Below are positions 897-57,624 of a stretch of DNA of 64,000 nucleotides, in pieces. Under the pieces are notes generated by a model. It saw only the letters and a program-made list of their open reading frames with translations. It did no database searches and was not told the origin of the DNA. Every line of letters starts with the position of its first letter. Position 1 is the stretch's first letter. The translations under genes were made by a program, and so were the position numbers. Source of the stretch: Odontesthes bonariensis. Lineage: Eukaryota; Chordata; Actinopteri; Atheriniformes; Atherinopsidae. The stretch is from positions 36,139,663-36,203,662 of the forward strand of contig NC_134510.1 of assembly GCF_027942865.1 (NCBI RefSeq). The letters are read 5' to 3'.

Positions 897-1041
897 CCGT
901 GTCCGGGGACCCATGGCACCTGTGTCCGGGGAACAGAAAGTGCAGGGACAAGTTTGGAGATGGGTCCTGTGACAAAGAGTGCACGGATACAAAGTGTCTC
1001 CGCGACGGCTTCGACTGCCTGAAGGACAGGGGTCACTGCAA
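897..1041 (+). CDS. Notch exon: Lin12/Notch repeat 2
   Basis: Preceded by acceptor CCTCCGCAG and followed by donor GTAAAA. Reads DPWHLCPGNRKCRDKFGDG and continues through CDKEC and DGFDC, the cysteine spacing and Asp-rich calcium-binding pattern of the second LNR of Notch (human NOTCH1 has the same DPW start and DGFDC). LNRs shield the S2 protease site until ligand pulls. The alternative acceptor at 858 is rejected because it puts a stop in frame. The first LNR and all EGF repeats lie upstream of the window. Confidence 0.85.
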
Positions 1042-4000
1042 GTAAAAACCCTTCTGTCACTATCACTTTAGAAGCATAGATTCTTGTTCATGTTTCAGTA
1101 TATTCTAGTTATTTTCACAGAATAGTTTATCAGCTCTGAAGTACCCTGATTTAAAAGGCTTTATTATCACAAACCCCTGTCTCTTGAGCAGGGGCGGTCC
1201 TAGGGGCGGGCCGACGGGGCAATTGCCCGGGGCGGCACCATTGCGAAACCCCGCCCCCAAACGACATCGCGAAAATGTTAAAATAGTTATAAACATGTTC
1301 AAAATCGTTTAAAACGTGTTATTTCTACACTATTACCACATTGTTGTAATAATAACATTACTATAAGTGGTTTTTGTTATTATAAGCATTTTTTGCCGTT
1401 TTTTTTTTTTTTTTCTTTACCGGGGGCGGGGCGTCTGAGGGGGCATTGCCCGCAGCGCAATTAACTGTAGGACCGCCACTGCTCTTGAGGTATTATTTGA
1501 GACTTAATTTTCATATAAATAACTGACTTCATCCAGAAAAGAAAAGCCAAAATGGTAACAGTCATTACTGTTGTTTAGTTTGTCAGAGGAATAATTGTGC
1601 ATTTTGGATTAAACTATTGAATCGGAGATGATGCATATATCGCATTACTTTGCCACTGATTTCTAATTATTGTCTCTCTTCACTCCTCCCAGTCCAGGCC
1701 ACACAGACTACTGCCGCGCGTATTACGCCAGCGGCCGCTGCGACCAAGGCTGCAACAACGCCGCCTGCGGATGGGACGGCAGCGACTGCATCAAACACCA
1801 GAAACCTCAGTGGGCCAAAGGCACCCTGCTTGTTCACAGTAACGTCCCAAAGCAGAATGGCACCAGCACCATCAGCCCCCTTCTCTGGACACTCAGTGTC
1901 CTCCTGCAGTCACCCCTCAAACTGACGGACTCCGTTCCTCTGGCTGCCAGCATGAACTTGTTGGACTTCAGTCCTCAGGAGCTCGCCGAGCTGCTGGCCC
2001 ACTCGTACCCGGGAGACTCAAACGGGTAGGTAATTAGTCAAATATCTCTGGTGTTATGATTCGAGGGGGTCAAAAATAGTTATTGTATAGTAATTAAATT
2101 AACAAGACGGATAATAAGAAGGACACCTGCGTAAGACAGATGAGAATATTGCAGCTATTTGTAAATTCAGGCTTTCTTCTTACAAATTTTGATCTGATAT
2201 ATTTATTGCAACAGGAGTAATTTAAAGGGGAAGTTTTTTTTTTTTCAAACCATAAAATATGTTCATCTACTCTTTTTTATTTTTTATTTTTTTTACATTA
2301 CACATAAAACATTTCTACATTATACGCCAGGGGATAAAAGAGGCCACATTAAAATATTAATCGCTTTCTGGTTGTTTGAGAATTCAATGGAGGTCATGTA
2401 CTGGCTGATCTCACCGAGAAAGGCAAGAAAATATGTTTTTTTTCGCATGAATTTACATTTATGAATATGAAATTTTGCCATTAAAATGATGAGGTTGATA
2501 ATAAAAGTTATGTTGGCTTTTTCTTTGGTTTTGTTAAAGTCAGGGAGCCCAAACAATACACTCCCCCAAGATGAATTAAACTCATTACCAATATTGTTAG
2601 CGATAAAGTACTCCACAGTACATTTCACATCAATATCTTTTTTTAATCTTTTAACAATATGATCATTGGATGGAAAAAATCTATGAATTAACTTAAAATA
2701 AACTTCTCTGACTTTATTAGTTAACAGGTATCTGTTGGGTAAGAGCCAGATCTTCTTCCAGTCTGTGTGTTCCAAGTATTTGTTCCAGTATGAGACCACG
2801 TATGGAACTGTGGTGTAATCCCTTTTAAATGGAATCTAATTAGTTTGTTGTTTTTACGTTCATCTACTCACCAATATCAGTTTGGTGAAAGTCGGCGTCC
2901 TTCTGACGCTATTTAGATCACTCGAGTTCCGCTTATATCCATATAAGGGCATCTACTGGGATGGCGTCATCAACGTGCGCTGCCGTAGCAGCAGCACCTT
3001 TACACGAAATTTGTTACTGCTGCTGGTAACATGCTCCGTTATTGCATATTTCCAAATTGCCATGTTGCAAAAAACTAGCAGTAGCAAACTCCATGGCTGT
3101 GTTCGAAACCGCATACTACATACTACTCATACTAACTTTTTGAGTTAGTATGCGAGTTTGAGTAAGCGAGAAGTTCCCGGATGCATACTAGATTCTCCAA
3201 AATGTTGGGTATGCATCATGAGGTTACTACTCATACTCAAACTACCCAAGATGCAACGTAATGTGACGTCGCCAATCGTCATTTCCTGTCAAAACGGCAG
3301 TTTCAAGCTAGCTACAACGAGGGTAGGTTCACTTCCTGTTTTCAAAACAAAAGCACCAATTGTATCGTAATGGCTTTCCCTATGATAAAAGGCAACGGGT
3401 ATTTTATTTTGTGAAAATAACCGGAAGTGCGTTAGCTCACTGCGGCTAGCTTTAGTAGCGCCGAATTCGTGGGAACAAAATTGTAAATAGCCGGTATTTT
3501 GTCAGATTTTCAACACGTTGGGGATCTAAACGACTACTTTCTCTCCTGAAAATGTTTCAAATGTTGCTAAAGTTTACAGAGTTTAGAGCTTAAGCGAAAT
3601 CAGCTTCAGGCCGGCTGATTTCGGCTCGGGCAGGAGCGAAATGCATTGTGGGTAAACGCTCTGCATACTGTCTGATCGATGAGTATGTAGTATGTAGTAT
3701 GCGGTTTCGAACACAGCCCATGTAAAGATGGCCGACCGTCACCGAGCTGCGCTGCAGTGGCGCGGCTCGATGACGTCATCCCAGTAGATGCCCGTTATGT
3801 GGATATACGCATCTCGAGTGATCTAAATATCGTTGGAAGGACGCCGATTTTCACCAAACTCTTATCGGCGAGTATATGAACGGATTTTATGCCAGAAATA
3901 AAGTCCAGTTTTTAAAAAACCGAACTTCCCCTTTAATTGATATAAATTTGTCCAGGATCTCCTTAGAAATAAAATATACATGTTACCGACGTTGGGATGC

Positions 4001-7000
4001 AGAGCAGGGGTGTTGGGTAAACACTTGAACTCAGTTAATTCTGCCTGACATGTAGAGAAGTGGAAAATAACAAACTTAATTTTGTCCTAGATCAGTATAA
4101 GCTTAACTGAGCTCTAAGTGACAGATATTAAAGGCGGATATTGTTTAAAAGTGCAACAGGAGGACAAGATCCACAGCAACACAAAACTATGTCACCTGCA
4201 CAACAGTAAGATTCAGCTCCTTTTGCATTAACACATACAATCATGTGAAAAGAAAGCACACCCTCTTTCATATCTAAGCTTTTATGTATCAGGACAATAA
4301 AAAAGAAACATGGAAAATACAATCTCAGATTAGCAACTAAATGTGACACATAGTGGCACTGTGTCATCTAATGTGTCCACCCCATGGTTGAACAGCTTAT
4401 AGAACCACCTCTGCAACTATAACTTGAAGTAATTAGTTTCTGTTTGATGTTATCAGTCTTTCCAGCGTTGAGTTTGCAGCTCTGGTTTCTGCACAGCTCT
4501 CTGAAGGTCCCAGCACAGCATCTCAGTCAGGCTGAGCTCTGGACTCTGACTGGACCGTTGCAGCACCTCGATTCTTCTCTTCTTCACACATTCTGCTGCA
4601 GATCTGCTGCTGTGTTTAGGATCTTTGTCCTGTTGATGAGGCAGTTTCAGCCCAGCTTCAGCTGTCGGACAGACGGCCGAGTTTGGTCTGTTTGGTCACT
4701 TTGGTCTCAGGTGTCCAAAGAACATTATTCCAGAGGAGATGTAGCTCTTCGGTTTTTTACAGTCTGTATGAGCTTAGGGTGAACTTGGCGGGATAGTTCA
4801 TATAGTTTGGAAATGGCCATTGAAACCCTTCCCAAATTTCCAGAACACTGGAAAAAATCAAAGTCTTACCAAGTATATTTGTCTCATTTCTAGTCAAAAT
4901 ATCTCATTACACTTAATATCAGACACAACTGCCTAACAAGTACCATTTCAGCCAGATATAGGGACTTGTTTGAAGACAATACATCTTGAATTACTTGTTA
5001 AATGAAAAAGTCGTGAAAACAAATTGTTTTGAGTCACATATCATATGAAACAAGCTTTTTTTTTTTTACATTTGAAGAGGTTTTTAAGCTAATTTCAAGA
5101 TCACTTTTATCTCAAAAGTCCTAAATATCACATTTTATTTCAAGAAATCTTGACAAGCCGATTTTCACTAGTTCCATTGGCAGATTTTTTTGCTTATTTC
5201 AAGCAAAAACGTCTTGTATTTGTTGTTTTTCTTACTTATTTTTGGAGGGGCATTTTTTCCAGTGAACCAATTGCTTCTCTAAGATCATTGCTGGTGTCTT
5301 TCCTCCTTGGCATATAATCCATGTGTTGTTGCTCATCTGAGGTTGTATTTACCTAATTTCAAGGTAAGGACAATACTTTTCACACGATTGTAAATCAACA
5401 CAAAATAAAAGGGTACCACGTACAGACTCTGTGGAGCCTCAGTTGGCCAGTCTGGTATATATCAGTGGACAAAGTACTGAATAAGACGGGCCTAAAAAAA
5501 AAGAGCTGTTCTTTCCTACTGTGTCTTTCCCAGTTCCCTCCTTTTCCTCCAAGTGGACAACAGGCCGTGCTCCCCTTCGCTCTCTACCTGTTTCCCGTAC
5601 GCTACCGAGGCCGCCAATTTCCTCCGTGCCGTCATACTGCTGAAGCCTTCCACGTTCCCCGCCCTCCCGGAGCTGAAGGCCATCATCGGTGTAAGAGGTG
5701 TCCGAGAGGAAATAGGAAGCAGAGAGGAGGAAAAGGAAGCCGAAGGTGTGCTCTGGTTTTCCTGTCTACCACACACACACAAGCAAGCACACATATCCAT
5801 CTTTGAATTTCATCCAAACTAAACAGTGTAAAAAAACTTTGTCCTTCCAGCGTGTAAAGCTGTCGCAGGTTTTAAGATCTGCTGACATATTTATTCTTAT
5901 ATAAATAGAGATGTACACACATTCAGACGATAATGACTAAATTATTTGGTGAAAGAAACTGATGTATTTATTATGACTGAGCCCGACGTCAGTGAGGATG
6001 TCGGTAAAAGTGAATGAAGCTTAAAGCTAATTTATTAAGGCCTGAGCAGTTTTTCCAACACTGAGGGTCAGGATTTCATCAGGGAAACTGTTTTTTTTAT
6101 TACTTTTATCTTCATAATAAAAGAGGAAAAGGAAACACGAGATGTGTAAATGTACTTTTTTTCTACAGCCCTTTACAGACAATACTTACGGTGTACCAAA
6201 GTTCTTTACAGCAGGTAATAAATAAAGAGAAGAAGAAGTAAAAACAAATAAAAACAATAAAAGAACAGTGAAAGCAATAAAATACAACAAAATCAAATAA
6301 GATAAAAGTGTCATCATACTACTGTATAAATTATATATTATATATTGCTGTGTAACTCTTAATGTTTTTATTTTCATTCAAAGTTTCAGCCAGAGCTGAC
6401 CCCTGCATGGCTGTGGGCTGTGGTTGCCATAGCGATCTCACACTAAAAACAATAAAAGAACAGTGAAAGCAATAAAATACAACAAAATCAAATAAAATCA
6501 AATAAGATAAAAGTGTCATCATAGTACTGTATAAATTATATATTATATATTGCTGTGTAACTCTTGATGTTTTTATTTTCATTCAAAGTTTCAGCCACAG
6601 AGCTGACCCCTGCATGGCTGTGGGCTGTGGTTGCCATAGCGATCGCCCTGCTGCTCGTACTGCCCCTGGTGGTGTTCCTGGTGATGAGGAGGGTGAGGCA
6701 GCGGCGGTCAGAGAGGAGCGGCAGCGTCAGGGTGAGACGCCGGTCTAAGGTCACGGATGACGACAGCAGCAAAGCGAAGGCCTGGATCCAGCACGTGGCG
6801 CACCAGGATCAGCGCGTCCGGTCCAGCAGAGAGAAGGACAAGATCAGCCTGCGGAAGAAGAAGAAGGCCAAGGAGGCGGAGAAAAAGAGAAGGAGGGAAC
6901 CGCTGGGGGAGGACGCCATCCGAATGAGGTGAGTGGAGCCGCTTTGAGGGGATGTTTCGTTTGCTGGAAGAATGATGTGAGTGTAAAACAAGTGAGAACG

Positions 7001-10000
7001 CGTCCTGTACAATCGCCACAGTGGCTAAATGTCACTTTCTCCTCTCACTTTTCATTTTATCTCTGTACAGAAACACTTCTGCTTTACATCCTGATGCATT
7101 AATAGCTCAATTATTTATGGTAAAATGAAATTAAAAGTGCCAAACATAGATTATTCATTCAGATCATTACTTTAAATGAGACAATAGTTTCGTGAAATAT
7201 ACATAAAGTTTTGAAAAAGACTTGAATGCAGTGCTTAGACCATAAAGTCATTAGGAAAACGAGTAAAAAAAAGTCTGTTGCTCACAGGCTTTTACTTTGT
7301 AAAAGTCTGTTGCTGTCTGCTGCAGAACAGGAAAAGAAAGTAATCGGCGGATCCACCAAACATGGAGAAGGGTACGGAACTTTTACTCGGCCATTTTCAT
7401 TTTAAAGTTCTTCCAGACGGCGGAGTCGACAGAACCAAAGTCATCTGTAAACTCTGCCAAGTTGAATTGTCTTCTCAGCGTTGTAGTTCCAGTCTAAAAT
7501 ATCACTTAAAGGCAAAACACTTTCAAAAGACTTAAAGTCTCTGATTCTCGCCCTATCCCAGGGAGTGAGTACAGCTACCCTTCAGAGGAAGATGATTTTG
7601 GCCATTTGTATTCAAGAGAAGACCTCAGTAAATACTGTACCTCCTCATGTTCCAGAACTAAATTTAGTTCACCCAGAGACTACCACTGCTGCGTGTTTCC
7701 ACATCACAAAAAACATTTAGATGTGCTCCATGGCTCTTTGGTGATTGGGGAAACTTAAAGGTAGGGTAGGAGATCCTGGATTTTGAGTCCAGCGAAGCTG
7801 CATTTTGAAAATACACAGGTAAAAAGTCCCAACCCTTTTCTTCACTTTCCCCCCCGAAGGCACGCCTCTAGAGTACATGAACGCGCACGAGCACAAAGGT
7901 GCACGAGCGCTGTTCTGACAGCAAGCATCGATTGGTTTGGCTAACTTTTGCTAACTTTTTCTCATGGCAGATTCACAGGTAAGAAAATACCTTTCAACAT
8001 CATAATGAACCGTTTAATAATGCTAGGTGCTAGCCTAGCTGGCTCTAGTTTAGCTTCCTGCCAAGCTTCTGGACGCGTAATTCGTTCATGGAGCAGGGTA
8101 CGCGCACAGGGGGAAGGAGGGGGAGGGAGGAGCAGGTTGCAGTTTGATAGACGGCATCAGTATCCAATCATTGTTAACGGTCCGTTCAGTATGATTGGAT
8201 AGTGTTTTTCCTAGATTGTACGTTCTAGAGGCCACTAAAACTTTTCATTTTTATGTCAAAACTTTTAATTAATTGGTTGCAATGGGGGTGTGAAGAGTAT
8301 TTCAAGCAATATGTAAAAGATGCTCCAGAAAAAGAACCCCTACCCCACCTTTAAGACCAAAACAGCCGAGAAATGTGTTGTTTCATAAACTGCGCTTTGG
8401 TTTTCAGGCCCCTGAAAAGGGACCAGGACGCGGGCAGCGACACAGATTTCACCCAGAGTTCAATGGAAGACATCAACATGAGATGCTCCAGGCGGCAGGA
8501 AGACGCCTCCATCTGCGACCACAGGGCACCGGAGCAGAGACATTTTCGGGCTGGAGCCTCTCAGACCCGCAGGCCAATGCAACGTAATGATGCCTCCACA
8601 TTTTAGACATTCTCATTTGCTTCCTCAGTCATTCATGACCACCAAAACCTTCCAATTTATTTCCTCTCAGTCCTTGTTTTTAAAGTTCTTTACCCTCTAT
8701 GTTGAATGTAATTCAATTGCAAAAAAAACCCCATATTTTTTAACTGACATTGTGACAACATTGTTATCGTGAATACTTTTGGCCACAATCATCATGTGGT
8801 GAAACACAGACATCATGCCAGTCCCAATTAGAAAAAGGCAAGGCAGTTTTATCTGTGCAGCACAATTCAACAACAAGGTGATTCAAAGTGCTTTATAGAT
8901 ACATTAAAACAGTAGAAATAAAAAGAATGATTTAAATTTTAAACAAAAAAGAAAGAAAGAAGAACAATAGATAAAATCAGAAGTTAAATGTGATTAAGTT
9001 TTGAACCTCAAGCTTCAGATTTGGAGCTTTATCCAAACGCAGATGAAAATAGGTGTGTCTTCAGCCTGGACTTAAACACACTGAGTGTTTCAGCTGATCT
9101 GAGGCTTTCTGGGAGTTTGTTCCAGACATGTGGAGCATAGAAGCTGAACGCAGCTCCTCCATGTCTGGTTCTGACTCTGCGAACTGATAGAAGACCGGAT
9201 CCAGATAAGCTGAGGGCTCTGGAAGGTTCATGCTGGGTCAGGAGGTCCCTGATGCATTCTGGTCCTGGACCATTCAAAGCTTTATAGAGCAGCATCAGAA
9301 AAAGTTATACATGTTACTACACTGTGATCACATGAACGCTTCCTCCTGATCAGACTCAGTTACTGAATTTTACCAGCTCTTATTATGGTTACCAGTGAGA
9401 AAATCCAGGATTATTTCCCTCAATTAGGACCATTTTCACAGAGCCCTAAAACACAGAAGGATAAGGGACCGTAAAGGACGAGATCTGAACACATCACAGC
9501 AGCTTTAAAATCTTTACACTGACTTCCAGTCAGTCACAGAATAGATTTTAACAGCCTGCTGATGGTTTACATCTGTGATGTGTTCAGAGAATATAAAGCC
9601 AGCAGAGCTCTTAGATCCAAGGACTCAGGTCAGCTGGTCCAGTCCAGAGTCCAGACTAAACATGGAGAAGCAGCATTTAGCTGTTATGCTGCAAACAAGT
9701 GGAACAAACTGCCAGTGGAGATTAAACTTTCACCAAATGGAGACATTTTTAAATCCAGGTTAAAAACATTTCTTTTCTCATGTGTCTATGCAGGAAATCT
9801 GCACGCTATCTTTGAACTTATCTGGACTGTTGCTTGTTTTTAAATTCTTTTAAATGATTTTATTTGTTTCTCTTTATATTCTTTTATGTTTTTTTTAATG
9901 CTTCTTCCACTCCCTGCTGCAATGCTTTTATTTTATGTAAAGCACTTTGAATTGTTTGTTCATGAAATGCGCTATACAAATAAATTTGAATTTATTTGAT

Positions 10001-13000
10001 TTAAAGGATTTTCAGGTTTAATAAACAAACATTAACATTAGTATTTTACATGTACTTTAGATATAATAGATATAGTATCAGTCACTACATTTCTGAGTTT
10101 TTTACTGTTTTGGGGAGATTTTCCATGAACTATTCGTCTCCCACCTGCACTTGTGTCAGCTTCTTCTATCCTGAAATGCTTCCTGTTTCTCTTCAGCTCC
10201 ACCCAGAGGTTGGGAGAGGACCGCCATGCCCCCGCCTCTGCTCAGCCCTCCTCAGCAGGTCTGTCGGTGTTTCTTTTGACAGACTCCATGTGTGTTTTGA
10301 TTGAACCTAAAGGTTTTGTATTTCCGTGTCGGCAGTCAGCAGAGTGGTGCGGTCCTGATGGGTCTGTGGTTCTGATCCGAGCGGTCCGGAGCGGGCTGGA
10401 CAGAGTGGTCTTAGAGCTGCTGCAAGCAGGAGTTCCAGTCAACAACACAGATCATACCGGTAAATCCTCCTCGCACTACTTATTAATGTTAGTTCGGCGC
10501 CTGAAAGCCTGAAGCCAGAGTTTTTTCTCCTGGTAATTCTTGGTGGTGAAGTAAGAATCGACTCATTGCTGACTCACTAATGAAATAACAGACATGAAGC
10601 CAATAACCTTCTCTGACTGGTGCATGTAGAGTTAGTTTTGAGAGCTAACCTTGTTTCTGCCCCTAACAGTCCGAGGCCAGGCTGGGAGTACACTACCATC
10701 TTTACTCTTATTTTATGGGTACTGTTTAAAGGGATAGTTCGCCTCTTTTGACATGAAGCTGTGTGACATCCCATATTAGCAACATCATTTATGAACATGT
10801 TCTTACCCCCTGCTGCGTCCTGTGAGCCGAGTTCCAGCCTCGTTTTGGTGTTGATGAAGGTAGTCAACAATATCTGCGTAGGGTGTCAACAATGTTTGTT
10901 GACACCTTTCAGTCTGAAGCAGTTGGACCCTTGGTCCCTACACCCATCCTTTTTTTTTTTTTTTTTTGCCACATTATTTTTATTTTCACTTTTTAACACT
11001 TTTACATACAGCCTTTACATTTGTACACTGGAAAAAATGCCCCTCCAAAAAGAAGTAAGAAAAACAACAAATACAAGACGTTTTTGCTTGAAATAAGCAA
11101 AAAAATCTGCCAATGGAACTAGTGAAAATCGGCTTGTCAAGATTTCTTGAAATAAGATGTGATATTTAGGACTTTTGAGTTAAAAGTGATCTTGAAATTA
11201 GCTTAAAAACCTCTTCAAATGTAAAAAAAAGCTTGTTTCATGTGAAATATGACTCAAAACAAGATGTTTTCAAGACTTTTTCATTTAACAAGATATTCAA
11301 GATGTCTCGTATTAAAACAAGTCCCTATATCTGGCTGAAATTAAACTTGTTAGGCAGTTGTGTCTTATATTAAGTGTAATGAGATACTCAACGAGACAAA
11401 CATAATTGGTAAGATTTAGATTTTTTCCAGTGTATATCTTCATTCAACTTCCATACAAAAAGTCGCTGCATTTGTTTAAAGACAAGTAAAAGCAAAACAA
11501 AACATAACACTCAAAACAAGGATGCTCCTCCTGTTAACCAAGGTGATAATCTATATACAAACAAGTATTATTAATAAATGCAAAATAAGACACAAATATA
11601 GAGAAAACATACAAATCTTACAAGGTCAGGATCTGCATTGCCCACAAAGATTAGTCATCCACTTCTTCATCTAGTAAATCCAAGTCTTTAATGCAGCTGA
11701 TGCTCCAAAAGTTTTCAAATAATTGCCGTTTAGCCTTTAATATGTAAGTTATTCTCTCTAATGGAAGGCTTGCTAACATCTGTCTTATCCATCGAGTAGT
11801 ACTCGGTCTACAGATTTTTTTCCACAATAATGCAACACATTTCTTGGCATAAAGCAAGCTGAGGTCTATAAATGCCCGCTCATTCCTACTATAGTTGTGT
11901 TTCTCTGGGTATATGCTCCCTGTATCCATCCTACTGAAACCACCCCGTGTAAACGCTCGAGTCAGCCACACATTTCTGATACCTGCAAACTGAGGGGTGG
12001 AGTAACTTGTAACTTACCCCGTATCTCTCACGTCCTCTTTTTGTTTCCCTCCTCTCCCTTCCTTTCCTCCGTCCTTCCCCAGCTCCCCTGCTCTCCTCCT
12101 CTGACTCAGAACAAAGTTAATAGTCAGGTCAACAGACATATTAGCTTTGTTGCTTATCCTTCTCTTTGCTCGAGCCTTCCCCAGAGCCTCTGTCTTCCTG
12201 TTTCTACAACAACCCCCCCTTCTTTTTTTTTGTCTTTCCTCGTGTCCCATGTTGTTCTTTTCTCCGCGGCTGAGGCATCCCTCCCTTAATCCTCCCTCTC
12301 TTCACCACCTGGGCTGGACTCTGTTGTTAAATGGTTGTTCACTGGCTGACTTACTCCCTCCCTTCTTCCCCCTCACCTCCCCTCCACTCACACTGTCTCT
12401 CTCAGGGAGATCAGCCCTGCACTGGGCATGCTCAGTAAACCACCTCTCCCTGGCAAGAACGCTCATTCGCTACGGGGCCGCTGTTGACCTCCAGGACAAC
12501 AAGGTAGCTACCTATTATTACACTGAAAAAAGTGACTTTTTGCTGAAGTAAACTCTATCAGAGTAACCGTCATAATTTCTACCTTGTATTTTTAAGATTC
12601 AGTAAGAACTAGAGCTTCTTAAGTAAAAATATTTTATTCTTATTCTTATTGGTTCAGTCTGCTAAGTTAAATTTATTTTTACTTTTATTGTTAAATGTAC
12701 AAATCTGTTTTTATTTAGTTTACTGATGTTTATTATTATTACTATTATTATTATTTACCCTACTCTTCATACTGTAGATTTGTTTATAGCTGATGTTTAT
12801 TCTCTATTTTTATTCTATTCTATTTGCTTGTTTTTCCTTTAATTGTTTACTTATCTTTTATACTATACGCTGTTGCAACATAATAATTTCCCAAATTGGA
12901 ATGAATAAAGTACTTATCTATCTATCTAAACATTTTATGAACGAAATACATGAATTATGGGGGAAGAGTAAGTTTTACTTAGGTTTCCTCATACAATTTA

Positions 13001-16000
13001 AATGTTTAATAGTTGTATGTACATAAACCTAGAAATACTACATAAACTTTACTCTGAAAGTGTTTCGTTAAAATCTACTAAGTTACTTCATAACAGCAAA
13101 TACTACAGAAATATCAAATTTACTTAAAATTTTGAGTAAAATGATGTTCCTGCCTATGAAAAACAAGTAGACTTTACTTAGTTTACTTAAAACTTAGATG
13201 TAATTAAGTAAATGTTACTTAATATCTTCAAAACTGTTATGTTTTATGGTAAGTAAAATTTGCTTGATATTGCAGCATTCAATCTTACTTAAATCATTTG
13301 AGTGCAAATACTTACAAAGGGTTTTTTAAGTAAATCTTATTTTTTTCAGTGTAGGGAATATTTAGAGTTTTTAATTAGCAACATTTTTGTGACTTTGAAT
13401 GTGTCGCTCCTTTAGGGCGAGACTCCGCTCTTCCTCTCTGCGCTGCACGGCTGCTATGACACTGCCAGGCTGCTCCTTCTCCACGCCGCCAACCTCGATC
13501 TGCATGACCGGAGGGGCCGGCGTCCCATCGACGTGGCCAGAGAGGCCATGCACCACCAGGTCCTGGAGCTCGTTCTGGCTCACCAGATTCAGAGAGGGCC
13601 CGTCGCTGTGGACCCGGCCAACGACATGACGTGGGAGGAGCGCGCCATGATGTACTCGCAGTGGGTGGGCTCGCAAGGCATGCCCGGGAGGAGTGCCTCC
13701 TTCTCTGGAATCATAGGACACCGAGATATGAACCCACCACCACAAAAGTGAGGTTTTAGATCCATCAGTTTCATCATATTTTTTTTTTTAATGAACCTGA
13801 GAGCTGATTACTTAAAGGGATAGTTCACCTCTTTTGACATGAAGCTGTATAACATCCCATTTCAGCAACATCATTTATGAACATCTTCTTACCCCCTGCT
13901 GCGTCCTGTGAGCAGAGTTCCAGCCTCGTTTTGGTGTTGATGAAGGTAGTCCGGCTAGTTGGCTGGGGTTTAAAAAATAAAGGGTTTTGCTTCTCAAAAC
14001 AATATGCGTTCAAAAGAGTAATACATTTGCATCACAGAATCGTTCTCCAGGAAAAAGTCAGACCTCACAATCGCTTGGCACTATTTTCTCTCCCTTCGTA
14101 TCACTGCGTGCTGTGTAGACCGTGCACAGCATCTTAGGCAGCTGGCAAAGATTAAGCAAATTCTTTTACGACAAGATTTTGAAACTTTAATTCATGCGTT
14201 CATTACAACTCGGCTGGATTACTGTAACTTTACTTTGGAGTCAGCCGGTCTTCCCTCACGCGTCTCCAGCGGGTCCAGAACGCTGCTGCTCGGCTTTTAA
14301 CTGGAGTCGGGAAGAGGGAGCACATCACCCCTATCCTGGCTTCTCTCCACTGGCTGCTTCACCCATATTCTCCCGCTCGCTGCCTCAGGTCAGCTGATCA
14401 GCTGCTCCTGGAGGTACCGAGGTCTAAACTAAAGCTTAGAGGAGACAGAGCTTTTAGTGTTGCCGCTCCCAAACTATGGAACGATCTGCCGTTACATATC
14501 AGAAGTGCCCCTTTATTGTCCACTTTTAAAACTCATCTTAAGACACATTTTTATTCTTTGGCTTTTAACACGTGTTGAGAGTTTGGCTCTTACTTTCTGT
14601 TATTAATTTTGTAAATTTGGTATTTCTTAGATGCAATTTCCTGCATTTTAACCGAATTGTGGGCCCCGTTTCAGCCCAATAAGGATCTGTCCTTTTGTCC
14701 CTAAATACGTGACGATTCCATTATTTCAAGGGACGGTTGGCAACTCGTTTAGGCAGCCCTGGCAAACACATCACGCTTCCTTTAAAGTAGGCATTCGGAG
14801 ACATCTCGAATAGCCTGCACAGTTTCATCCACTCTGTATAATCATCGGTGCATAAATTGAACGCAAAGCCCAGATCACGTTTGCCCCTTTCTAGTCGCCA
14901 TTAATACTAATATACACACAACGAGCAAACAGGAGCGCAACAACAACAGCAACGCGCACGCACGGCCACAGTGAATTCAGACTGGCGTTGAGCCGACATC
15001 AGAACGCATTTGAACATGTAGTTCAGGGTCGGACTGGGAAAAAAAATCGGCCCTGGCAATTTTCCCCGGGACCAGCCCCCCCCCCCCCTCAGTATTAATT
15101 AGTATCTCCAATCTAATTAAATAAAAATAAAAAACAAGCACAGACACAGAAAAAATACACACCCAACACACAACCTGACTATCGGCTAACAACCATAATC
15201 AGTAACCTACACAAACCCAGACACATAATGGCTCGGCGGCCAGCAATCGGATAAACCAATGAAGTGAATCAATCCTGTGAAAGAATGAAAACAAGTGAAT
15301 GAAACCTGCACTCACCCATTATGAAGTTAACTCTGCCAGCCCCATACTCTTGCCCCTGCTCAGCCAACTCCTTGACGTCGGGTATGGTTGGTAACGTTAC
15401 GGCGGCTAGCATTAGCAACGAGGCTGCTAGGTTTGCTAAATCGGTAAGCATTAGGCTACTGAAGAAAGCTAGTCTTTTTAGCTACGTTATATTATCATCT
15501 TTCTTGTCGGCTATAGCCTTTGTTTACGGCCACTGGCCCTAACCTGACGCGTTAGCTTAGCTGTCAAATCACCGGAAGTTTTCACCGGAAGTACTGGCGC
15601 ACACACAAAAGCTCTCTCCAGACATATCATTCTTTCATTCCGCCCAGATGAAATTTAATGCCACTCTTCGAAAATCGGCGAAATTTAAGACATTTTAAGA
15701 CCTTAAAAAACGTATTTTTTATTTAAGACTTTTTAATACTTTTTAAGGATCCGCGGAGATCCTGTAATGGCGGCATGGACAGACCCACTTGAGGGATGGG
15801 GGCAGGGGGCGCAATCGTAACACGCACCTGCTTCAGAACTTGTCCTGAAGAGGCAAGGTCTGTGCACCCCCCCCCAAAAAAAATATATACAATACATTAC
15901 GAGCCACATGGCCATTAACGGGCTGCTAGCAAATGTAGACTAGATAAATACATTTAAAAATCGTATATTTAAAAAAAATAAAATAAAAAATCGGAGGCCA

Positions 16001-17229
16001 CCGGCCCAGATGTGGACCGGCCCACCGGGAAACAGGGGGGGCACACCGGCGTGGATGGGGGGGCAATGCCCGCGAGTGCCCCCCCCGTGGCGCTGGCGCT
16101 GGAGCAGTCCCCTGCTTCAGAGCAGCAAACACCGTAACAGGTGCAGCGGTCGGCATGCGGCAGCACGCAGTGATAAGAAGGGAGAGAAAATAGGGCCAAG
16201 AGATTGTGAGGTCTGACTTTTTCCTGGAGAACGATTTTGTGATGCAAATGTATTACTCTTTTGAACGCATATTGTGTTGAGAAGCAAAACGCTTTATTTT
16301 TTAAGCCCCAGCCGACTAGCCGGACTACCTTCGTCAACACCAAAACGAGGCTGGAACTCTGCTCACAGGACGCAGCAGGGGGTAAGAAGATGTTCAGAAA
16401 TGATGTTGCTGATATGGGATGTCATACAGCTTCATGTCAAAAGAGGCGAACTATCCCTTTAAGCTGAAGGAGGCGTTTCTTTTAAAATCTCACGATGCAT
16501 TCAATGAAACTTTGTGCTTGATTAAAAAAGGTCCAAAGCCAACTGTCAGGTTTGATTTTATAGGATAAAATGCAGTGTTATATTAGAGCTGTCGAACATT
16601 TAAAAAAATCATCAATTACATTATTTCGGGTGATAAAATAAGTAATTTTACAGTTATACTGAGTGTAAGTTGTTCACCGTATATCTCTTAATACTCTAAT
16701 GTTATGACTAACTGCTTTTCTTGCCAGTGATTGGTCTATGGGCCGAGTGCAGTACCCCCCCCCTCAGAACTGGCGACCGCAGCTCAACCAATCAGCAACA
16801 GCACTGGTTCCTCCGAGAATCATGGGCCGCTCCCCTCGTCCAATCAGCACCTTACAGGAGGTGACCTCAGAAGACGAGGACCGCGAAAGGCATCAGGAGG
16901 CGCCCAGAGCCACGACACCTCACTTCCTGTCGCCCCAGCCCGCCCCCCGGCAGCGGTCCTTCTCCTGCACCCAGCATGCTTTGCAGCGGCGCTCCAGCGC
17001 TCACCAGCCAGAGCCCAATTACCTTATCGTGACGGACAGAACAGCCAACGAGCCCATTGAAAGGGTGGTCGTCTCAGACGCCGCCGCCCAGCCTGACCGC
17101 CAGCCGGCGGTAAGCGGTGAGCATCCCAGCAGAGCGGAACAGGCAGCAGTGAGCTCGACAAACACCGAGCAGAAGTCCAGAGGTGAAAGGTCAAACAACG
17201 CCTCTGACTCCAGACAGACAGCCTTGTAG
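897..17229 (+). CDS. Notch-family receptor, 3' part (ten exons, 5' incomplete)
   Basis: Single-pass membrane receptor of the Notch signalling pathway; the ligand-binding EGF repeats lie upstream of the window. Exons read from splice sites and phase: 897-1041, 1693-2025, 5534-5688, 6595-6928, 8408-8583, 10197-10258, 10336-10459, 12406-12503, 13416-13747, 16728-17229 (stop TAG at 17227). All ten join in one continuous frame. Order: Lin12/Notch repeats 2 and 3, heterodimerisation domain, membrane segment, a very basic juxtamembrane stretch, the family motif REPLGED, ankyrin repeats resembling Notch repeats 5-7, then a short C-terminal tail of about 165 residues. Odd points: ankyrin repeats 1-4 absent, no furin-type basic site in the heterodimerisation domain, no clear RAM motif. 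Linkage to pbx2 and gpsm3 suggests a NOTCH4-like or divergent teleost 'notch-like' gene; the exact orthologue is uncertain. Confidence 0.88.
1189..1481 (+). mobile_element. hAT-type MITE with 8-bp target duplication
   Basis: Ends CAGGGGCGGTCCTAG and CTGTAGGACCGCCACTG are near-perfect inverted repeats. The flanks are the exact 8-bp duplication CTCTTGAG (1181-1188 and 1482-1489), the hallmark of hAT elements. The interior is GC-rich at the edges and AT-rich in the middle, with no ORF. It lies in the intron between the two LNR exons of Notch. Confidence 0.88.
1693..2025 (+). CDS. Notch exon: Lin12/Notch repeat 3 and first half of heterodimerisation domain
   Basis: Acceptor CCTCCCAG, donor GTAGGT; phase matches both neighbours. 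LNR3 reads DYCRAYYASGRCDQGCNN followed by CGWDGSDC, a very typical LNR. After it comes a long stretch matching the N-terminal half of the Notch heterodimerisation domain (KGTLLVHSNV, then LLWTLSVLLQSPLKL). The exon ends LLAHSYPGDSNG and joins directly to the exon starting SLLFLQVDNRPC. In human NOTCH1 this interval carries the furin S1 cleavage site (RRRREL); no cluster of basic residues is present here. Confidence 0.85.
2273..2857 (-). mobile_element. 5'-truncated L1-like LINE fragment
   Basis: Minus-strand ORF at 2320-2799 contains VREVYFKLIHRFFPSNDHIV, resembling the C-terminal region of L1-type ORF2 after the reverse transcriptase. The A-rich tail appears as T-runs at 2273-2295 on the plus strand. 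Flanked by the 12-bp duplication GTTCATCTACTC (2261-2272 and 2858-2869), proof of retrotransposition into the TTAA element. Confidence 0.8.
3095..3718 (+). mobile_element. Palindromic DNA element nested in the TTAA element
   Basis: Begins GGCTGTGTTCGAAACCGCAT and ends with its reverse complement (ATGCGGTTTCGAACACAGCC). Flanked on both sides by CAT, possibly a 3-bp target duplication. The interior holds repeated ACTACTCATACT-like motifs and no convincing gene. Confidence 0.65.
4200..5345 (-). mobile_element. Degraded Tc1/mariner relic split by a CACTG element
   Basis: The stretch 4460-4640 is nearly identical to the Tc1-like relic at 23487-23645. Downstream text (TTTGGAAATGGCC) also matches. 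The transposase frame is broken throughout. A CACTG-ended element (4846-5264) is inserted in it. Boundaries are approximate. Lies in a Notch intron. Confidence 0.6.
4846..5264 (+). mobile_element. CACTG-ended nonautonomous DNA element (copy 2, longest intact copy)
   Basis: 419 bp, ends CACTGGAAAAAAT and ATTTTTTCCAGTG. AA on each side forms the 2-bp target duplication. Same family as 287-582 and 11036-11432. Confidence 0.8.
5534..5688 (+). CDS. Notch exon: second half of heterodimerisation domain
   Basis: Acceptor TCTTTCCCAG at 5533. Reads SLLFLQVDNRPC, then CFPYATEAANFLRA, which lines up with the NOTCH1 stretch IVYLEIDNRQC...CFQSATDVAAFLGA. It ends LKAII plus one base; donor GTGTAAGAG fits the phase of the next exon (a donor two bases later would not). 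Confidence 0.8.
6251..6645 (+). repeat. Tandem duplication covering intron end and start of the Notch membrane exon
   Basis: About 190 bp at 6251-6437 is repeated at 6446-6645. Both copies run from AACAATAAAAGAACAGTG through the polypyrimidine/acceptor region TTCATTCAAAGTTTCAG into exon sequence (CTGACCCCTGCATGGCTG). The upstream copy stops after GCGATC, partway through the membrane helix, and lacks two bases just after the acceptor. The downstream copy leads into the real exon. Confidence 0.85.
6595..6928 (+). CDS. Notch exon: transmembrane segment and basic juxtamembrane region
   Basis: Acceptor AAAGTTTCAG, donor GTGAGT. Begins TELTPAWLWAVVAIAIALLL, a hydrophobic membrane helix running to about VFLVM, followed by the stop-transfer RRVRQRR. 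The next 80 residues are extremely rich in K, R, E and S and end in KKRRREPLGEDAIRMR. The REPLGED element is shared with other Notch proteins just after their first nuclear localisation signal. The RBPJ-binding RAM core (LWFPEGF in NOTCH1) is not recognisable; the only tryptophan is in KAWIQH. A truncated duplicate of the start of this exon lies immediately upstream (6384-6437). Confidence 0.85.
7265..7525 (+). mobile_element. Fragment of the TAGGGCTGGGC hAT family
   Basis: Matches the internal region of the copy at 39966-40613, including GGCGGATCCACCAAACATGG and the BED-finger-like coding stretch, but both terminal repeats are missing and similarity stops after GGCAAAACAC near 7522. Lies in the Notch intron 6929-8407. 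Confidence 0.75.
7755..8354 (+). mobile_element. TTAA-flanked MITE
   Basis: TTAA at 7755-7758 and 8351-8354; ends AAGGTAGGGTAGG and CCCTACCCCACCTT are imperfect inverted repeats. No ORF of note. Ends 53 bp upstream of a Notch exon acceptor (8408). Confidence 0.7.
8408..8583 (+). CDS. Notch exon: linker between membrane region and ankyrin domain
   Basis: Acceptor GTTTTCAG, donor GTAATG. Continues the REPLGED region as PLKRDQDAGSDTDFTQSS, equivalent to the GLKPLKN stretch of NOTCH1, then an acidic/basic linker ending in RRPMQ. No domain is recognisable beyond the Notch linker position. The phase (one base left over) fits the short exon at 10197. Confidence 0.7.
8825..9300 (-). mobile_element. 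L2-type LINE 3' fragment (minus)
   Basis: ORF at 9029-9295 minus contains MLLYKALNGPGPECIRDLL and HVWNKLPESLRSAETLSVFK, the C-terminal end of the reverse-transcriptase ORF common to teleost L2-like LINEs. The remaining 3' end runs to about 8830. Confidence 0.75.
9465..10005 (+). mobile_element. L2-type LINE 3' fragment (plus)
   Basis: ORF 9562-9843 carries the same C-terminal motif in the form NKWNKLPVEIKLSPNGDIFK. The 3' end has AAAGCACTTTGAATTG and a TTGAATTTATTTGATTT tail. Related copies: 29906-30296 and 30565-30825. Confidence 0.75.
10197..10459 (+). CDS. Notch exons: pre-ankyrin segment (10197-10258) and first remaining ankyrin repeat (10336-10459)
   Basis: The 62-bp exon reads PPRGWERTAMPPPLLSPPQQ, matching the position of the NOTCH1 segment AMAPTPPQGE just before the ankyrin domain. 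After an intron of only 77 bp, the next exon reads CGPDGSVVLIRAVRSGLDRV and ends VNNTDHTG. This aligns best with ankyrin repeat 5 of other Notch proteins (DGTTPLILAARL ... DVNAVDDLG), not repeat 1. There is no room between the two exons for repeats 1-4. Confidence 0.75.
10729..10905 (+). mobile_element. Left half of the TTAA foldback family
   Basis: TTTAAAGGGATAGTTCGCCTC to about 10862 matches the left arm of the elements at 13812 and 45558. The right arm is absent and the sequence changes after GATGAAGGTAGTC. Confidence 0.7.
10948..11960 (-). mobile_element. 5'-truncated L1-like LINE with nested CACTG element
   Basis: Minus ORF 11651-11971 contains SLLYAKKCVALLWKKICRPS and ASLPLERITYILKAKRQLF, typical of the C-terminal end of teleost L1 ORF2. 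The poly-A tail appears as a run of T at 10951-10968. The 3' region is interrupted by the CACTG element 11036-11432. This insertion fills much of the intron where the missing Notch ankyrin repeats might be expected. Confidence 0.75.
11036..11432 (-). mobile_element. CACTG-ended nonautonomous DNA element (copy 3, inverted)
   Basis: Same terminal repeats and interior as copy 2 in the opposite orientation. Flanking TA on both sides is the 2-bp target duplication. Confidence 0.8.
12406..12503 (+). CDS. Notch exon: ankyrin repeat (equivalent of repeat 6)
   Basis: Acceptor TCTCTCAG, donor GTAGCT. Reads RSALHWACSVNHLSLARTLI then RYGAAVDLQDNK, closely matching the NOTCH1 stretch KSALHWAAAVNN ... NGANKDMQNN. 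The phase connects directly to 10459 and 13416. Confidence 0.85.
12521..13351 (+). mobile_element. Second CACTG-type element family, carrying a LINE tail
   Basis: Ends CACTGAAAAAAGTGAC and TTTTTTCAGTG; TA on each side. The interior has repeated 'acttaagtaa'-like motifs. A LINE 3' tail (about 12700-12928, ending GTACTTATCTATCTATCT) is nested inside. It starts 17 bp after the donor of one Notch exon and ends 64 bp before the acceptor of the next, so it makes up nearly the whole intron. Confidence 0.7.
13416..13747 (+). CDS. Notch exon: last ankyrin repeat and post-ankyrin segment
   Basis: Acceptor CTCCTTTAG, donor GTGAGG. Starts GETPLFLSALHGCYDTARLL, then RPIDVAREAMHHQVLELV, the counterpart of the final Notch ankyrin repeat (ETPLFLAAREGSYETAKVLL ... 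RDIAQERMHHDIVRLL). The remainder (MTWEERAMMYSQWVG...) is gene-specific. The exon follows a CACTG-ended element that fills most of the preceding intron. Confidence 0.85.
13812..16462 (+). mobile_element. TTAA foldback element split by composite insertions
   Basis: TTAA at 13812-13815 and 16459-16462. Left arm to about 14122 and right arm from about 16119 are inverted copies of each other and match the uninterrupted element at 45558-46204. The central 2 kb is inserted material: an L2/Rex-type LINE 3' fragment on the plus strand (about 14125-14620, with the reading KLWNDLPLHIRSAPLLSTF), a putative hAT end (CAGGGTCGGACTGGG at 15024), short C-runs and unassigned sequence. Confidence 0.65.
16728..17229 (+). 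CDS. Notch last exon: short C-terminal tail
   Basis: Acceptor TTCTTGCCAG. Encodes about 165 residues starting NDWSMGRVQYPPPQNWRPQL and ending SDSRQTAL, rich in P, S, T, Q and E. NOTCH1-3 have several hundred residues after the ankyrin domain including a transactivation region; this tail is much shorter, as in NOTCH4. I do not recognise a clear PEST phosphodegron. A polyadenylation signal follows at 17451. Confidence 0.8.
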
Positions 17230-17480: not shown

Positions 17481-18020
17481 CAGTTTGTATTCTGACTGCT
17501 GCAGAGTTATTCATGAAGAATGAATAAAAGGACTGACTGCACAGAGATGCATGCGACAAAGGGACTTTTCCCACATAAGATGGGGACTTTCTCTAATGGA
17601 TTTATTTTATTGTATTTGTGTGTACTCAGTACCTTTGTAAGTCACAGTCACTGTAATTTATCCTCAGAACAGGTAATATGGTGGCAATGTTGTTGTGCTT
17701 CTAACAAGGAGCTGATAAACTCTACAGTGTTCAGACACCAAGACTGGAAAACAACGAAGAGATGCATATCGGAATAACGATAAACACAACCAAAAGCCAT
17801 CATAAGCATGGTGGAACATAAAAAGTGGAAGGAATCTTGTGTAAATTATGCCTTTTTTTTGTTGCTGTAATTAAATTCTTATGTGGAACAGGGAAATAAA
17901 GAGATGCAAAACATCTAAGCAGCTTCCTACAAACACTCCAGGCATACAGACATAGCTTCCATCTCAAGTAAATGACTTTGTATTATAGGTCTGAGAATTT
18001 TTTATTTATTTATTTTTATC

Positions 18021-19029: not shown

Positions 19030-19189
19030 TTCCTCTGCAAAGCTGTGGCAGCTCAGGTTGCCAGGATAGTAGCTCGGCCCTGCTGCTCAGTCTGTGCATC
19101 AGACCTACCTGCGTCTCATAATCCAAACAGTTGATGACTTCCGGAGAAATAGAAAGCTGGAGTCAGAATGGGCTCCTTCTGCATCATGG

Positions 19190-31567: not shown

Positions 31568-43273
<11,706 letters not shown>

Positions 43274-44619
43274 CTTCAGCGACGCACAGTGGCGACGACT
43301 GCTGCCCGACTGTGCTCACACACACGCACACGCTCACACGCACACCACTGCCTGATCCGAGGCATCGTGCAAAGCGAGGTCCCCTAGCGATTGACGGCCA
43401 AAGGTACAAGGCGTGCAAACACGGTGCAGCCAGCGTGTAAAGTGTTCTCATGGTGCACAAGTGTAGTAACTCTGCTGGGTTGAAATCAACCACAACATCT
43501 GCGCTCTTTGCATTTTCAGAAAGCAGAAGTGTGTGTGTGTGCGCATGTGTGTGAGGAGGGGGGCAAGATGACAAAGAAAGAAGTCAAAAGTATGCGCTTT
43601 ATTTCCACACTACAATCCCAAACCTGGTTACAAGCAGCAGCAGAGATGTGACGCTTTAGATTGGAGATGGTGTCTCTTTTGTAAAGCGATGATCTCTCTC
43701 ACTTTGTCTGTCTACTTCTGCTTTTAGCTTCAAGTCAACAGGATGTGTGCCAAAACCACAGAAGTGTCAGTGGAACCGTGTTGCCTGTTTCAACATGTTG
43801 CAGCTTGGCTGTAACACACTCAAACGCTCAGCAATTAAAGCAGCAGCAGCAGCAGCAGCAACAGCTGCCCACAGCTGCTCATCCAGTTCTGACTTTACGT
43901 TCAAATTGCAGAACTTCTCCCTGGGAGTCACAAGCAGACGGATCAGATGCACGGCGAGAGAGTTCTGTCTGCTTCTGGCAGTCATATTTCATGATAGATG
44001 TGGGCCAAGTAAATAAGGGGTGGGCTGTAACAAGAGGAACAGGAAGAGAAGAGACAAGGGAGAGAAGGTAACAAGGCAGACAGAGAGGGTGAGAGCTCGT
44101 CCCGTCGGCATGTGAAACGCTTCACAGCAGGTTTTTTTTTTTTCTTCTACATAAAGATATTGAGACAAGTGACGAGCCAAAAAATGCTGTGCTCAGTGTG
44201 TGGCAACTTCAAGGGATGATGTTGTGAGGAGATAAAGGTAAGGGTGAAGTTACTGAAGTTACAGGTAGAGAAAGCAACGTGGGATTGTGTCTGTAAAAAG
44301 AGAATTTCTTTGACATTTTGGCCATCATTTAGAAATGAGAATCGTCACAAATGTTTGTCGTCACATGGCTGACGGAAATATTCGTCTTACACCGGTTAGA
44401 TTTTTCTGCCTGAAACATCTGCAGCCACCATGCCTGAACTTGTTAAACTGGTTTTTCACATTTCTCAAGAGAAAAAAACACGAGCTCCAGTCTGTTTTTA
44501 GGTGTATGTCAGGGGTGGCGTTTTTTTTCCCCTCTGAAGCAGTAAATAGGTCGGAAACGATTTTAACCCGTGTTTCTTTTTTTCTTTTTTTTTTTGTCAG
44601 AGTTTGACAAAAGAGATTC
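43274..44619. promoter_or_regulatory. Shared upstream region of divergent pbx and gpsm3, with CAG repeat
   Basis: pbx (minus) and gpsm3 (plus) start codons are 1.35 kb apart, head to head. A CAG run of about seven units lies at 43839-43861. An acceptor-like TTTTTTGTCAG at 44590-44600 shortly before the gpsm3 ATG suggests an upstream noncoding exon. No TATA box was assigned. Confidence 0.5.
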
Positions 44620-46762
44620 ATGGACTGCGCAGAGATCAGAGTTGAAATGGCTGCGGAGGAGCTGTTGGAGCCGCTCGTCATCACAGAGGACGGAGACGCG
44701 GCTGCGTGTGTCACAGAAGCGGAGGCAGCGAGCGGCTCAGAGGCCGCCACAAAGATGGAGCAGCACTCAGGGGAAAGCTCTGTGTTGGAGGGCCATTCCA
44801 CAGAGGACAGACCAGAGCCTTCAAATGAGAGCACAAGTGATGGACAGAACGGGGGGCAGACTCTTAACGTGACAATTACAGAAGAACCCGGTGGCACGGA
44901 AGATAAAAAAGCTGCATTAAACGAGCATCAGGTGGACGAAAAGGAGTCAGAGCCACGACCTGAAGGGGCTGTGAATCCAGAGGAGGACCCAAAAAAGGTT
45001 GGTGGGCTGCTCAGTCAGCAGGTTGCATGGTAAACAAAGCACTTGTATGTAATGTTATTATATTATATCAACAAACCGTGACGCACTAAACATCCTCATT
45101 TTGGAAGAAAATCATTTCATTTACAGGGGGTATGTGGGAGTACGTAGGAGTGAAGTGAATTCTTTTGCTGTGCCAACAAACACTCTGTGCCACTCACTCA
45201 GAAAACCTTTTCCACTCCTCCCCTCTCTGCCACCGACCCGCGCTTTCTCAGGTTCGCCGGTTAACCCCCGACTTCCCGGAGTCGCTGTACGAGCTGCTGT
45301 GCACCCTCCAGGAGGGGAGACGGCTCAATGACCAGCGCTGCTCCTTCAGGCTGGAGGGGGGCATCAGAAGGAGGAGGTGCCACTCTGAGCCCAACACCAC
45401 CAAACCGGCCAACAGAGGTGTGTGGGGGGGGCGTCCAAGAGACCGCCTCACAGGGGGGGTGTGATGAAAGCGCTGCATTTGTTTCCATGATATGATGCTG
45501 ACGCATGTTAATCACCAAACTGCTCTTTTTTTGCGATGACTCGACTGTTTTCAGACTTTAAAGGGACAGTTCGCCTCTTTTGACATGAAGCTGTATGACA
45601 TCCCATATTAGCAACATTATTTATGAACATTTTCTTACCCCCTGCTGCGTCCTGTGAGCCGAGTTCCGGCCTCGTTTTGGTGTTGACGAAAGTAATCCCG
45701 GCTAGTTGGCTGGGGTTTAAAAAATAAAGCGTTTTGCTTCTCAAAACAATATGCGTTCAAAAGAGTAATACATTTGCATCACAAAATCGTTCTCCAGGAA
45801 AAAGTCAAACCTCACAATCGCTTGGCACTATTTTCTCTCCCTTCATATCACTGCCTGCTGTGCAGACCGAGCAGCAAACACCGTAACAGGTGCAGCTGTC
45901 GGCAGCACGCAGTGATACGAAGGGAGAGAAAATAGTGCCAAGCGATTGTGAGGTCTGACTTTTTCCTGGAGAACGATTTTGTGATGCAAATGTATTACTC
46001 TTTTGAACGCATATTGTTTTGAGAAGCAAAACGCTTTATTTTTTAAACCCCAGCCAACTAGCCGGACTACCTTCATCAACACCAAAACGAGGCTGGAACT
46101 CTGCTCACAGGACGCAGCAGGGGGTAAGAAGATGTTCAGAAATGATGTTGCTGATACGGGACGTCATACAGCTTCATGTCAAAAGAGGCGAACTATCCCT
46201 TTAATGTATCCATCTGGCCTGCTTGCATCCCCACTGAAGCCCCGTTCTCTCTCCCTTTTCCCCCCCAGTTATCTTTTCCTCCATGACTTCACTGCAGAAA
46301 GAGGAGTTTTTCGAGCTGGTGGCCACAGCACAAGCCCGCCGGCTTGATGACCAGAGGGCCCAGCTTGAAAGGTCTCCACCGCCAAAATCAAAAGCCAGAA
46401 CTTTCAGAGGAAGCCTAAAACAGCTGTCTTTTGTGAAAAAGCCAGCAGCAGTAGTTCCTGTCCCCAAACAGGATCTGTATGATATGATTCTGACAACACA
46501 AGTAAGTGGTCTAAACTTGTTTTTTTTTCTTTTATTATCACGACCAAATGTGTTGTTGTTAGGGTCGAACAAAGTGCATTGTGGTGGCGGGAAACATCTT
46601 ATTTCACACCTTTTTTTTGCGATCAAATTTTTATTTTCATTTCAATAAGTCCAACAGAAATATTTCAGAGGATACAATCTTATTAGAATGGATTCCCAAA
46701 GAAAGACAGTTGGCCCAAGACATAAGAACGTGTCATGGGAGAACACAGCAAAAGTATTGATG

Positions 46763-57400: not shown

Positions 57401-57624
57401 ACACGCTACAGAAGATGGTGATTGAGGTAATGTTGATGATCGGGTCAAAATGCAAATAACTAACTAAAAGAGACGGTGATATCACAAGATACAGTTATTC
57501 TGTCAATATTACTGACAGTATTTTTTACTTTTCATAGTATTATTTTATTAGTACTGTTTACGGGCGTTTTTTTGTGTGAATATGTGTACACATGACACTT
57601 AATGCTACATATGTACGCCCTCCT

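What the first reader, a model, noticed from the sequence alone, without database searches (positions are those of the whole stretch)
10197..13747. Notch intracellular domain appears to keep only three ankyrin repeats (equivalents of 5-7)
Seen: the pre-ankyrin exon (10197-10258) splices, after a 77-bp intron and in perfect phase, to an exon whose best match is Notch ankyrin repeat 5, then to repeats 6 and 7. Known: other Notch proteins have seven repeats that form the platform for RBPJ and Mastermind. Inference: this receptor may signal weakly, differently, or without the canonical complex. The following intron is full of L1, foldback and CACTG insertions, a possible cause or result of exon loss.
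Basis: partly seen in the sequence, partly recalled or inferred. Interest (0 to 1): 0.82.

Follow-up and report, generated by a model that had tools for sequence, protein, structure and literature searches.

The report
Stripped-down fish NOTCH4-type (notchl) gene
A fish gene sitting where mammals keep NOTCH4 still reads as an open protein-coding gene but seems to have lost the parts a Notch receptor needs to bind its ligand and to build its usual gene-switching complex, including repeats 1-3 of its seven ankyrin repeats.

Summary
The ankyrin loss is real; the count is off by one and the change is wider. Exons 10336-10459, 12406-12503 and 13416-13747 align without gaps, over 129 residues, to Notch repeats 4, 5 and 6-7: four units remain, of which only 5 and 6 pass Pfam's cut-off one by one. 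The gene also shows no EGF array, LNR1, furin-type S1 site or RAM motif. Yet ten exons from LNR2 to the stop can be joined into about 755 open codons, and codon positions differ from the paralogues as in coding DNA. Neighbours (bromodomain/BET and ABC-transporter genes upstream; PBX and GoLoco genes downstream) mark the MHC paralogon that holds NOTCH4 in mammals; salmon 'notchl' is listed with such neighbours. Best reading: the teleost NOTCH4/notchl gene, reduced, and unlikely to signal through RBPJ-Mastermind. No RNA and no other fish sequence could be examined, so a recent relic is not excluded.

The parts
897..1041 (+). exon: LNR2 (in the paralogues one exon carries the last two EGFs, LNR1 and LNR2; here it starts just before LNR2)
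   Evidence: PDB NOTCH1 NRR match starting at LNR2; LNR HMM; paralogue exons
1693..2025 (+). exon: LNR3 and N-terminal half of the heterodimerisation domain; no R-x-K/R-R furin-type site (read by eye)
   Evidence: Pfam LNR, PDB match, translation
5534..5697 (+). exon: C-terminal half of the heterodimerisation domain (NODP); 3' end unresolved (5688, 5690 or 5697 among several in-frame choices)
   Evidence: Pfam NODP E=1.2e-8
6595..6928 (+). exon: transmembrane-like segment, basic juxtamembrane region, KRRREPLGED block, no hydrophobic-W-hydrophobic-P RAM motif; start unresolved (6589, 6595, 6601 or 6603)
8408..8583 (+). exon: pre-ankyrin linker
   Evidence: open frame and splice borders
10197..10258 (+). 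62-bp exon: pre-ankyrin linker; donor GTCTGT looks weak; the paralogue e3 profile does not match it
10336..10459 (+). exon: ankyrin unit 4 (degenerate; its GPDG resembles the start of repeat 1)
12406..12503 (+). 98-bp exon: ankyrin unit 5
   Evidence: Pfam Ank E=1.5e-7; Notch e6 HMM E=1.8e-8
13416..13747 (+). exon: ankyrin units 6 and 7 and following tail
   Evidence: Notch e7 HMM E=1.1e-14; Pfam Ank E=6.9e-5
16728..17229 (+). last exon: C-terminal tail to the stop codon; no other copy in the genome search
36589..43315 (-). neighbour: PBX gene (PBC domain and homeodomain exons), in the PBX2 position
   Evidence: Pfam, genome search
45252..46501 (+). neighbour: short GoLoco gene, GPSM3-like (name by recall)
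   Evidence: Pfam, genome search

Best explanation
The window holds the teleost gene of the NOTCH4 (MHC) paralogon, named notchl in zebrafish and salmon. In this fish it is reduced to LNR2-LNR3, heterodimerisation domain, transmembrane segment, a basic juxtamembrane region without the RAM motif, ankyrin units 4-7 and a short tail. Shown: the parts present, the parts not found, an open frame, the neighbours. Inferred: it is, or was until recently, a translated membrane protein that does not bind Notch ligands and does not assemble the RBPJ-Notch-Mastermind complex, because the RAM anchor and repeats 1-3 are missing. If it acts, the likeliest way is as a non-canonical or inhibitory modulator of the other Notch genes, for example a gamma-secretase substrate or an ankyrin decoy in arterial endothelium, where zebrafish notchl is expressed. 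A possible origin of the ankyrin change (inferred, untested) is one in-register deletion joining the start of repeat 1 to repeat 4: it would explain the GPDG at the start and the repeat-4 end with its donor in the usual phase.
For: Four other Notch loci in this genome each have the four ankyrin exons; the window gene shows no repeat 1-3 exon. Whole-EGF patterns: 0 in 124 kb on C6 against 15, 19, 17 and 18 in 30 kb of C7, C27, C26 and C20; best EGF-HMM hit on C6 E=1.4. A paralogue exon with EGFs+LNR1+LNR2 gave 142 genome rows (150 of 234 candidates scored): four cover at least residues 2-158 of 163 (C26, C20, C7, C27); two lie on C6, an EGF-only piece at 31.88 Mb and this gene's LNR2. No RAM motif (present in 4 of 4 paralogues). 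About 755 open codons where a Markov-1 simulation gives 17.7 stops on average, minimum 8 in 300. Third-position differences exceed second-position ones against each of 4 paralogues (p from 1.2e-5 to 6.7e-13); GC3 0.727 over the exons from 6597 on. Neighbours: BET/bromodomain and ABC-transporter exons upstream, PBX and GoLoco downstream. PBX loci also share a contig with Notch on C26 (about 175 kb apart), C7 and C20. A published table lists PBX2, GPSM3 and NOTCH4 one after another (PMC1309616, passages). Salmon NOTCHL is listed with GPSM1B, TAP1, PBX2 and BRD2A, order not given (PMC6786245, passages). Zebrafish notchl is expressed in dorsal aorta and intersegmental vessels (PMC9338088, passages). 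ICN1-4 of mammals have RAM and seven repeats, and ANK is required for all known Notch functions (PMC3192765, passages).
Against: No transcript and no second fish sequence was available, so expression, present selection and the state of notchl elsewhere are unknown. No start codon or signal-peptide exon is proven: a candidate ATG at 666 fits the phase, but such ATGs occur 0.2 per kb per strand, about 1.9 in the 9.2 kb scanned, and two were found. The join of the exons near 5690 and 6595 is unresolved: 20 donor-acceptor pairs keep the frame, and the best-looking donor (GTAAGA after 5690) does so with one acceptor only, 6603. Donor GTCTGT at 10258 looks weak. The paralogue e3 profile matches neither linker exon, so the equation of the 62-bp exon with e3 is by eye. 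Exons as degenerate as 10336-10459 could escape the profiles. NOTCH4 orthology rests on neighbours; no tree with a NOTCH4 sequence was made, and the names BRD2, TAP, PBX2 and GPSM3 go beyond what Pfam shows. The inhibitory role has no direct evidence.
Confidence: 0.58

Rival explanations
1. A relic: a NOTCH4/notchl gene that recently lost its 5' half and part of the ankyrin domain and is decaying, its remaining exons not yet broken.
For: No EGF array, LNR1 or proven first exon; repeat-rich introns; a weak donor at 10258 and an unresolved join near 5690/6595; degenerate unit 4; much weaker constraint than in the canonical genes (second-position differences 0.35-0.37 against 0.15-0.18).
Against: No stop in about 755 codons against 17.7 expected; coding pattern of differences from all four paralogues. 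These speak for constraint over most of its history, not for the present.
Confidence: 0.27
2. A complete Notch receptor whose EGF exons and repeats 1-3 are missed through assembly error or extreme divergence.
For: Unit 4 shows that profile searches can nearly miss an exon.
Against: No N in 124 kb; no EGF or LNR1 match in the 60 kb upstream, where other genes already lie, the nearest ABC_membrane match being about 14 kb upstream of the window; only 77 bp separate exon 10336 from the exon before it; no fifth EGF+LNR1 exon among the genome rows.
Confidence: 0.1
3. A lineage-specific duplicate of notch1, notch2 or notch3 that landed here and degenerated.
For: Sequence alone does not place it: 0.37-0.41 amino-acid identity to all four.
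Against: Similar distance to all four and a PBX + GoLoco neighbourhood.
Confidence: 0.05

Closest known systems
zebrafish/salmon notchl
   Same: by neighbours (BRD2A, TAP1, PBX2, GPSM1B listed with it in salmon; PMC6786245 passages) most likely the same gene
   Different: its domain content in zebrafish or salmon could not be checked here
mammalian NOTCH4
   Same: the MHC paralogon with PBX2 and GPSM3 (PMC1309616 passages)
   Different: mammalian ICN4 has RAM and seven ankyrin repeats (PMC3192765 passages); here the RAM motif and repeats 1-3 are not found, nor an EGF array
NOTCH1 negative regulatory region (PDB 3l95)
   Same: LNR2-LNR3-HD align (E=7e-38)
   Different: no LNR1, no furin-type S1 site
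NRARP
   Same: a short ankyrin stack that inhibits Notch (PMC8229355 passages); analogy only
   Different: no sequence comparison made; three repeats; not a membrane protein (recalled)

Membership tests
Notch receptor | tandem EGF-like array | tested here: not met
   0 in 124 kb, controls 15-19 per locus; HMM best E=1.4 (trained on the four control loci, so its control is not held out); genome search
Notch receptor | three LNR modules | tested here: not met
   2 of 3 (LNR2, LNR3):
Notch receptor | heterodimerisation domain | tested here: met
   NODP E=1.2e-8, PDB; the N-terminal half (NOD, PF06816) was not matched in this gene
Notch receptor | single transmembrane segment | tested here: inconclusive
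   hydrophobic stretch at the right place; no topology program run
Notch receptor | RAM hydrophobic-W-hydrophobic-P motif | tested here: not met
   no match in the juxtamembrane exon; present in 4 of 4 paralogues
Notch receptor | seven ankyrin repeats | tested here: not met
   four units 4-7, two above the Pfam Ank cut-off
NOTCH4/notchl | MHC-paralogon neighbours PBX and GPSM3-type | tested here: met
NOTCH4/notchl | sequence phylogeny with NOTCH4 | not tested
   no NOTCH4 sequence from a database was used
NRARP | NRARP sequence and three-repeat fold | not tested
   considered as analogy only

The most novel reading that the evidence does not exclude
Teleost notchl has become a stable, selected 'mini-Notch': a membrane protein with no ligand-binding array, a partial regulatory region and a four-unit ankyrin stack, acting outside the RBPJ-Mastermind complex as an endothelial brake on the other Notch receptors.
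Probability: 0.22. Interest if true: 0.75.

Novelty: new variant of a known kind. Interest (0 to 1): 0.55.

Why it matters
One paper says NOTCH4 was identified only in mammals (PMC10277265, passages) and another that its zebrafish orthologue is absent (PMC1309616, passages); a third reports Notch4 in lungfish (PMC11401434, passages). A gene in the NOTCH4 position with an open but stripped reading frame would help explain why it was missed in fish, and would be a natural test of which Notch parts are dispensable.

Tried and rejected
Rejected: three repeats numbered 5-7; the TE-rich intron as the site of loss; a second copy of this gene elsewhere (searches found none); the signal-like ATG at 666 as a proven start (chance level). 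Led nowhere: tRNA scan (none found); paper searches (no paper listed; two papers each). In one search the LNR3 block of C27 was set out of frame; one search replaces it. Confidence in the main reading went from 0.6 to 0.58 and in the relic from 0.25 to 0.27 because of the unresolved join found there.
Full report
The window lies at C6:36139663-36203662 of a 945-Mb genome held without a name. The Notch-family gene runs on the + strand from window 897 to 17229. Ten exons with GT-AG borders can be joined into about 755 codons ending in a stop (four models, 753-758 letters with the stop). The join between the exons near 5690 and 6595 is unresolved: 20 in-frame donor-acceptor pairs exist, and the best-looking donor, GTAAGA after 5690, keeps the frame only with the acceptor at 6603.

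Ankyrin part. The four other Notch loci (C7, C27, C26, C20) each carry exon e4 (repeats 1-3), e5 (repeat 4), e6 (repeat 5) and e7 (repeats 6-7). In the window gene 12406-12503 is e6 and 13416-13747 is e7, with the same phases. Exon 10336-10459 is e5-like: units 4-7 align with repeats 4-7 of C27 over 129 residues without a gap, human repeat 4 is its tblastn partner, and it ends at the same phase-1 donor. It is degenerate: Pfam Ank alone E=0.085, below cut-off, although Ank_2 spans units 4-6 at 61.3 bits in the joined protein. No e4 was found in 124 kb, both strands; the best e4 match is a cross-match to the gene's own e7 (E=0.0065). Held-out controls on C20 and C26 put the right exon first in 10 of 10 tests. 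Results against: the e3 profile matches neither linker exon, and a generic ankyrin profile finds only units 5 and 6 here, so an exon as degenerate as unit 4 could be missed. Between exon 10336 and the exon before it there are 77 bp.

Other losses. The whole-EGF pattern occurs 0 times in 124 kb on C6 and 15, 19, 17 and 18 times in the 30-kb stretches of C7, C27, C26 and C20 (one C7 hit is on the minus strand). Only LNR2 and LNR3 are present. In the paralogues LNR1 and LNR2 share one exon with the last two EGFs; here that exon begins just before LNR2. A genome search with that exon gave 142 rows, 150 of 234 candidates being scored; four rows cover at least residues 2-158 of 163 and are the canonical loci. 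The heterodimerisation region shows no furin-type site (by eye), and its N-terminal half is not recognised by Pfam NOD, which finds the four canonical loci. The juxtamembrane exon keeps KRRREPLGED but has no hydrophobic-W-hydrophobic-P motif, which all four paralogues have.

Is it a gene? A first-order Markov simulation of the coding sequence gives 17.7 stops on average and never fewer than 8 in 300 runs. Over 208-242 codons, second-position differences are 0.35-0.37 and third-position ones 0.56-0.69 against each paralogue; between C20 and the other three canonical genes they are 0.15-0.18 and 0.55-0.60 over 209 codons. So it evolved as coding DNA under much weaker constraint. This does not show that it is translated today. 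No first exon is proven.

What gene? Upstream on the other strand lie exons with an ABC_membrane match, the nearest about 14 kb from the window, and exons with bromodomain and BET matches. The PDB comparison gives ABCB members and TAP1 among others; that this is TAP1 or TAP2 and BRD2 is by recall and position. Downstream lie PBX exons and GoLoco exons of a short protein, GPSM3-like by recall. The genome search gives six PBX loci; those on C26, C7 and C20 share contigs with Notch genes, those on C19 and C4 do not, and C27 has a Notch but no PBX row. The GoLoco gene has only weak relatives elsewhere. This fits the MHC paralogons, with C6 as the NOTCH4 one. Salmon NOTCHL is listed with GPSM1B, TAP1, PBX2 and BRD2A (PMC6786245, passages); zebrafish notchl is expressed in arteries (PMC9338088, passages).

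Mechanism. In mammals RAM likely makes the first contact with CSL/RBPJ and the ankyrin stack with CSL forms the surface that recruits Mastermind; repeat 1 becomes ordered on binding (PMC3192765 and PMC8229355, passages). Without the RAM motif and repeats 1-3 that assembly is unlikely (inference). Mammalian ICN4, unlike ICN1-3, already fails to induce T-cell leukaemia in mice. A regulatory or inhibitory role is the most likely function if there is one, but it is not shown. For all papers cited I saw passages only. I saw no paper describing a reduced teleost NOTCH4 in the listings of searches; several of these lists were capped and the library is open-licence only.

Noticed in passing
25376-26135 (-): A hes/her-type gene next to the Notch-family gene: basic-helix-loop-helix-like motif near 26135 (recognised by recall) and a following open frame; Pfam gives no hit for that frame.
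   Followed up: partly
6249-6437 and 6444-6644: A tandem duplication of about 200 bp (93%) that copies the first part of the transmembrane exon.
   Followed up: no
10960-11876 and about 1.2-0.3 kb upstream of the window: A repeat of about 0.9 kb, 94% identical, containing a 0.4-kb element with further copies in the 124 kb.
   Followed up: no
18002-19060: A minisatellite of GTGGCACCC-like units after the gene, seen by eye.
   Followed up: no
56541-57425 and 57995-61828: LINE-like open frames of 294 and 1277 codons (the class is recalled, not searched).
   Followed up: no
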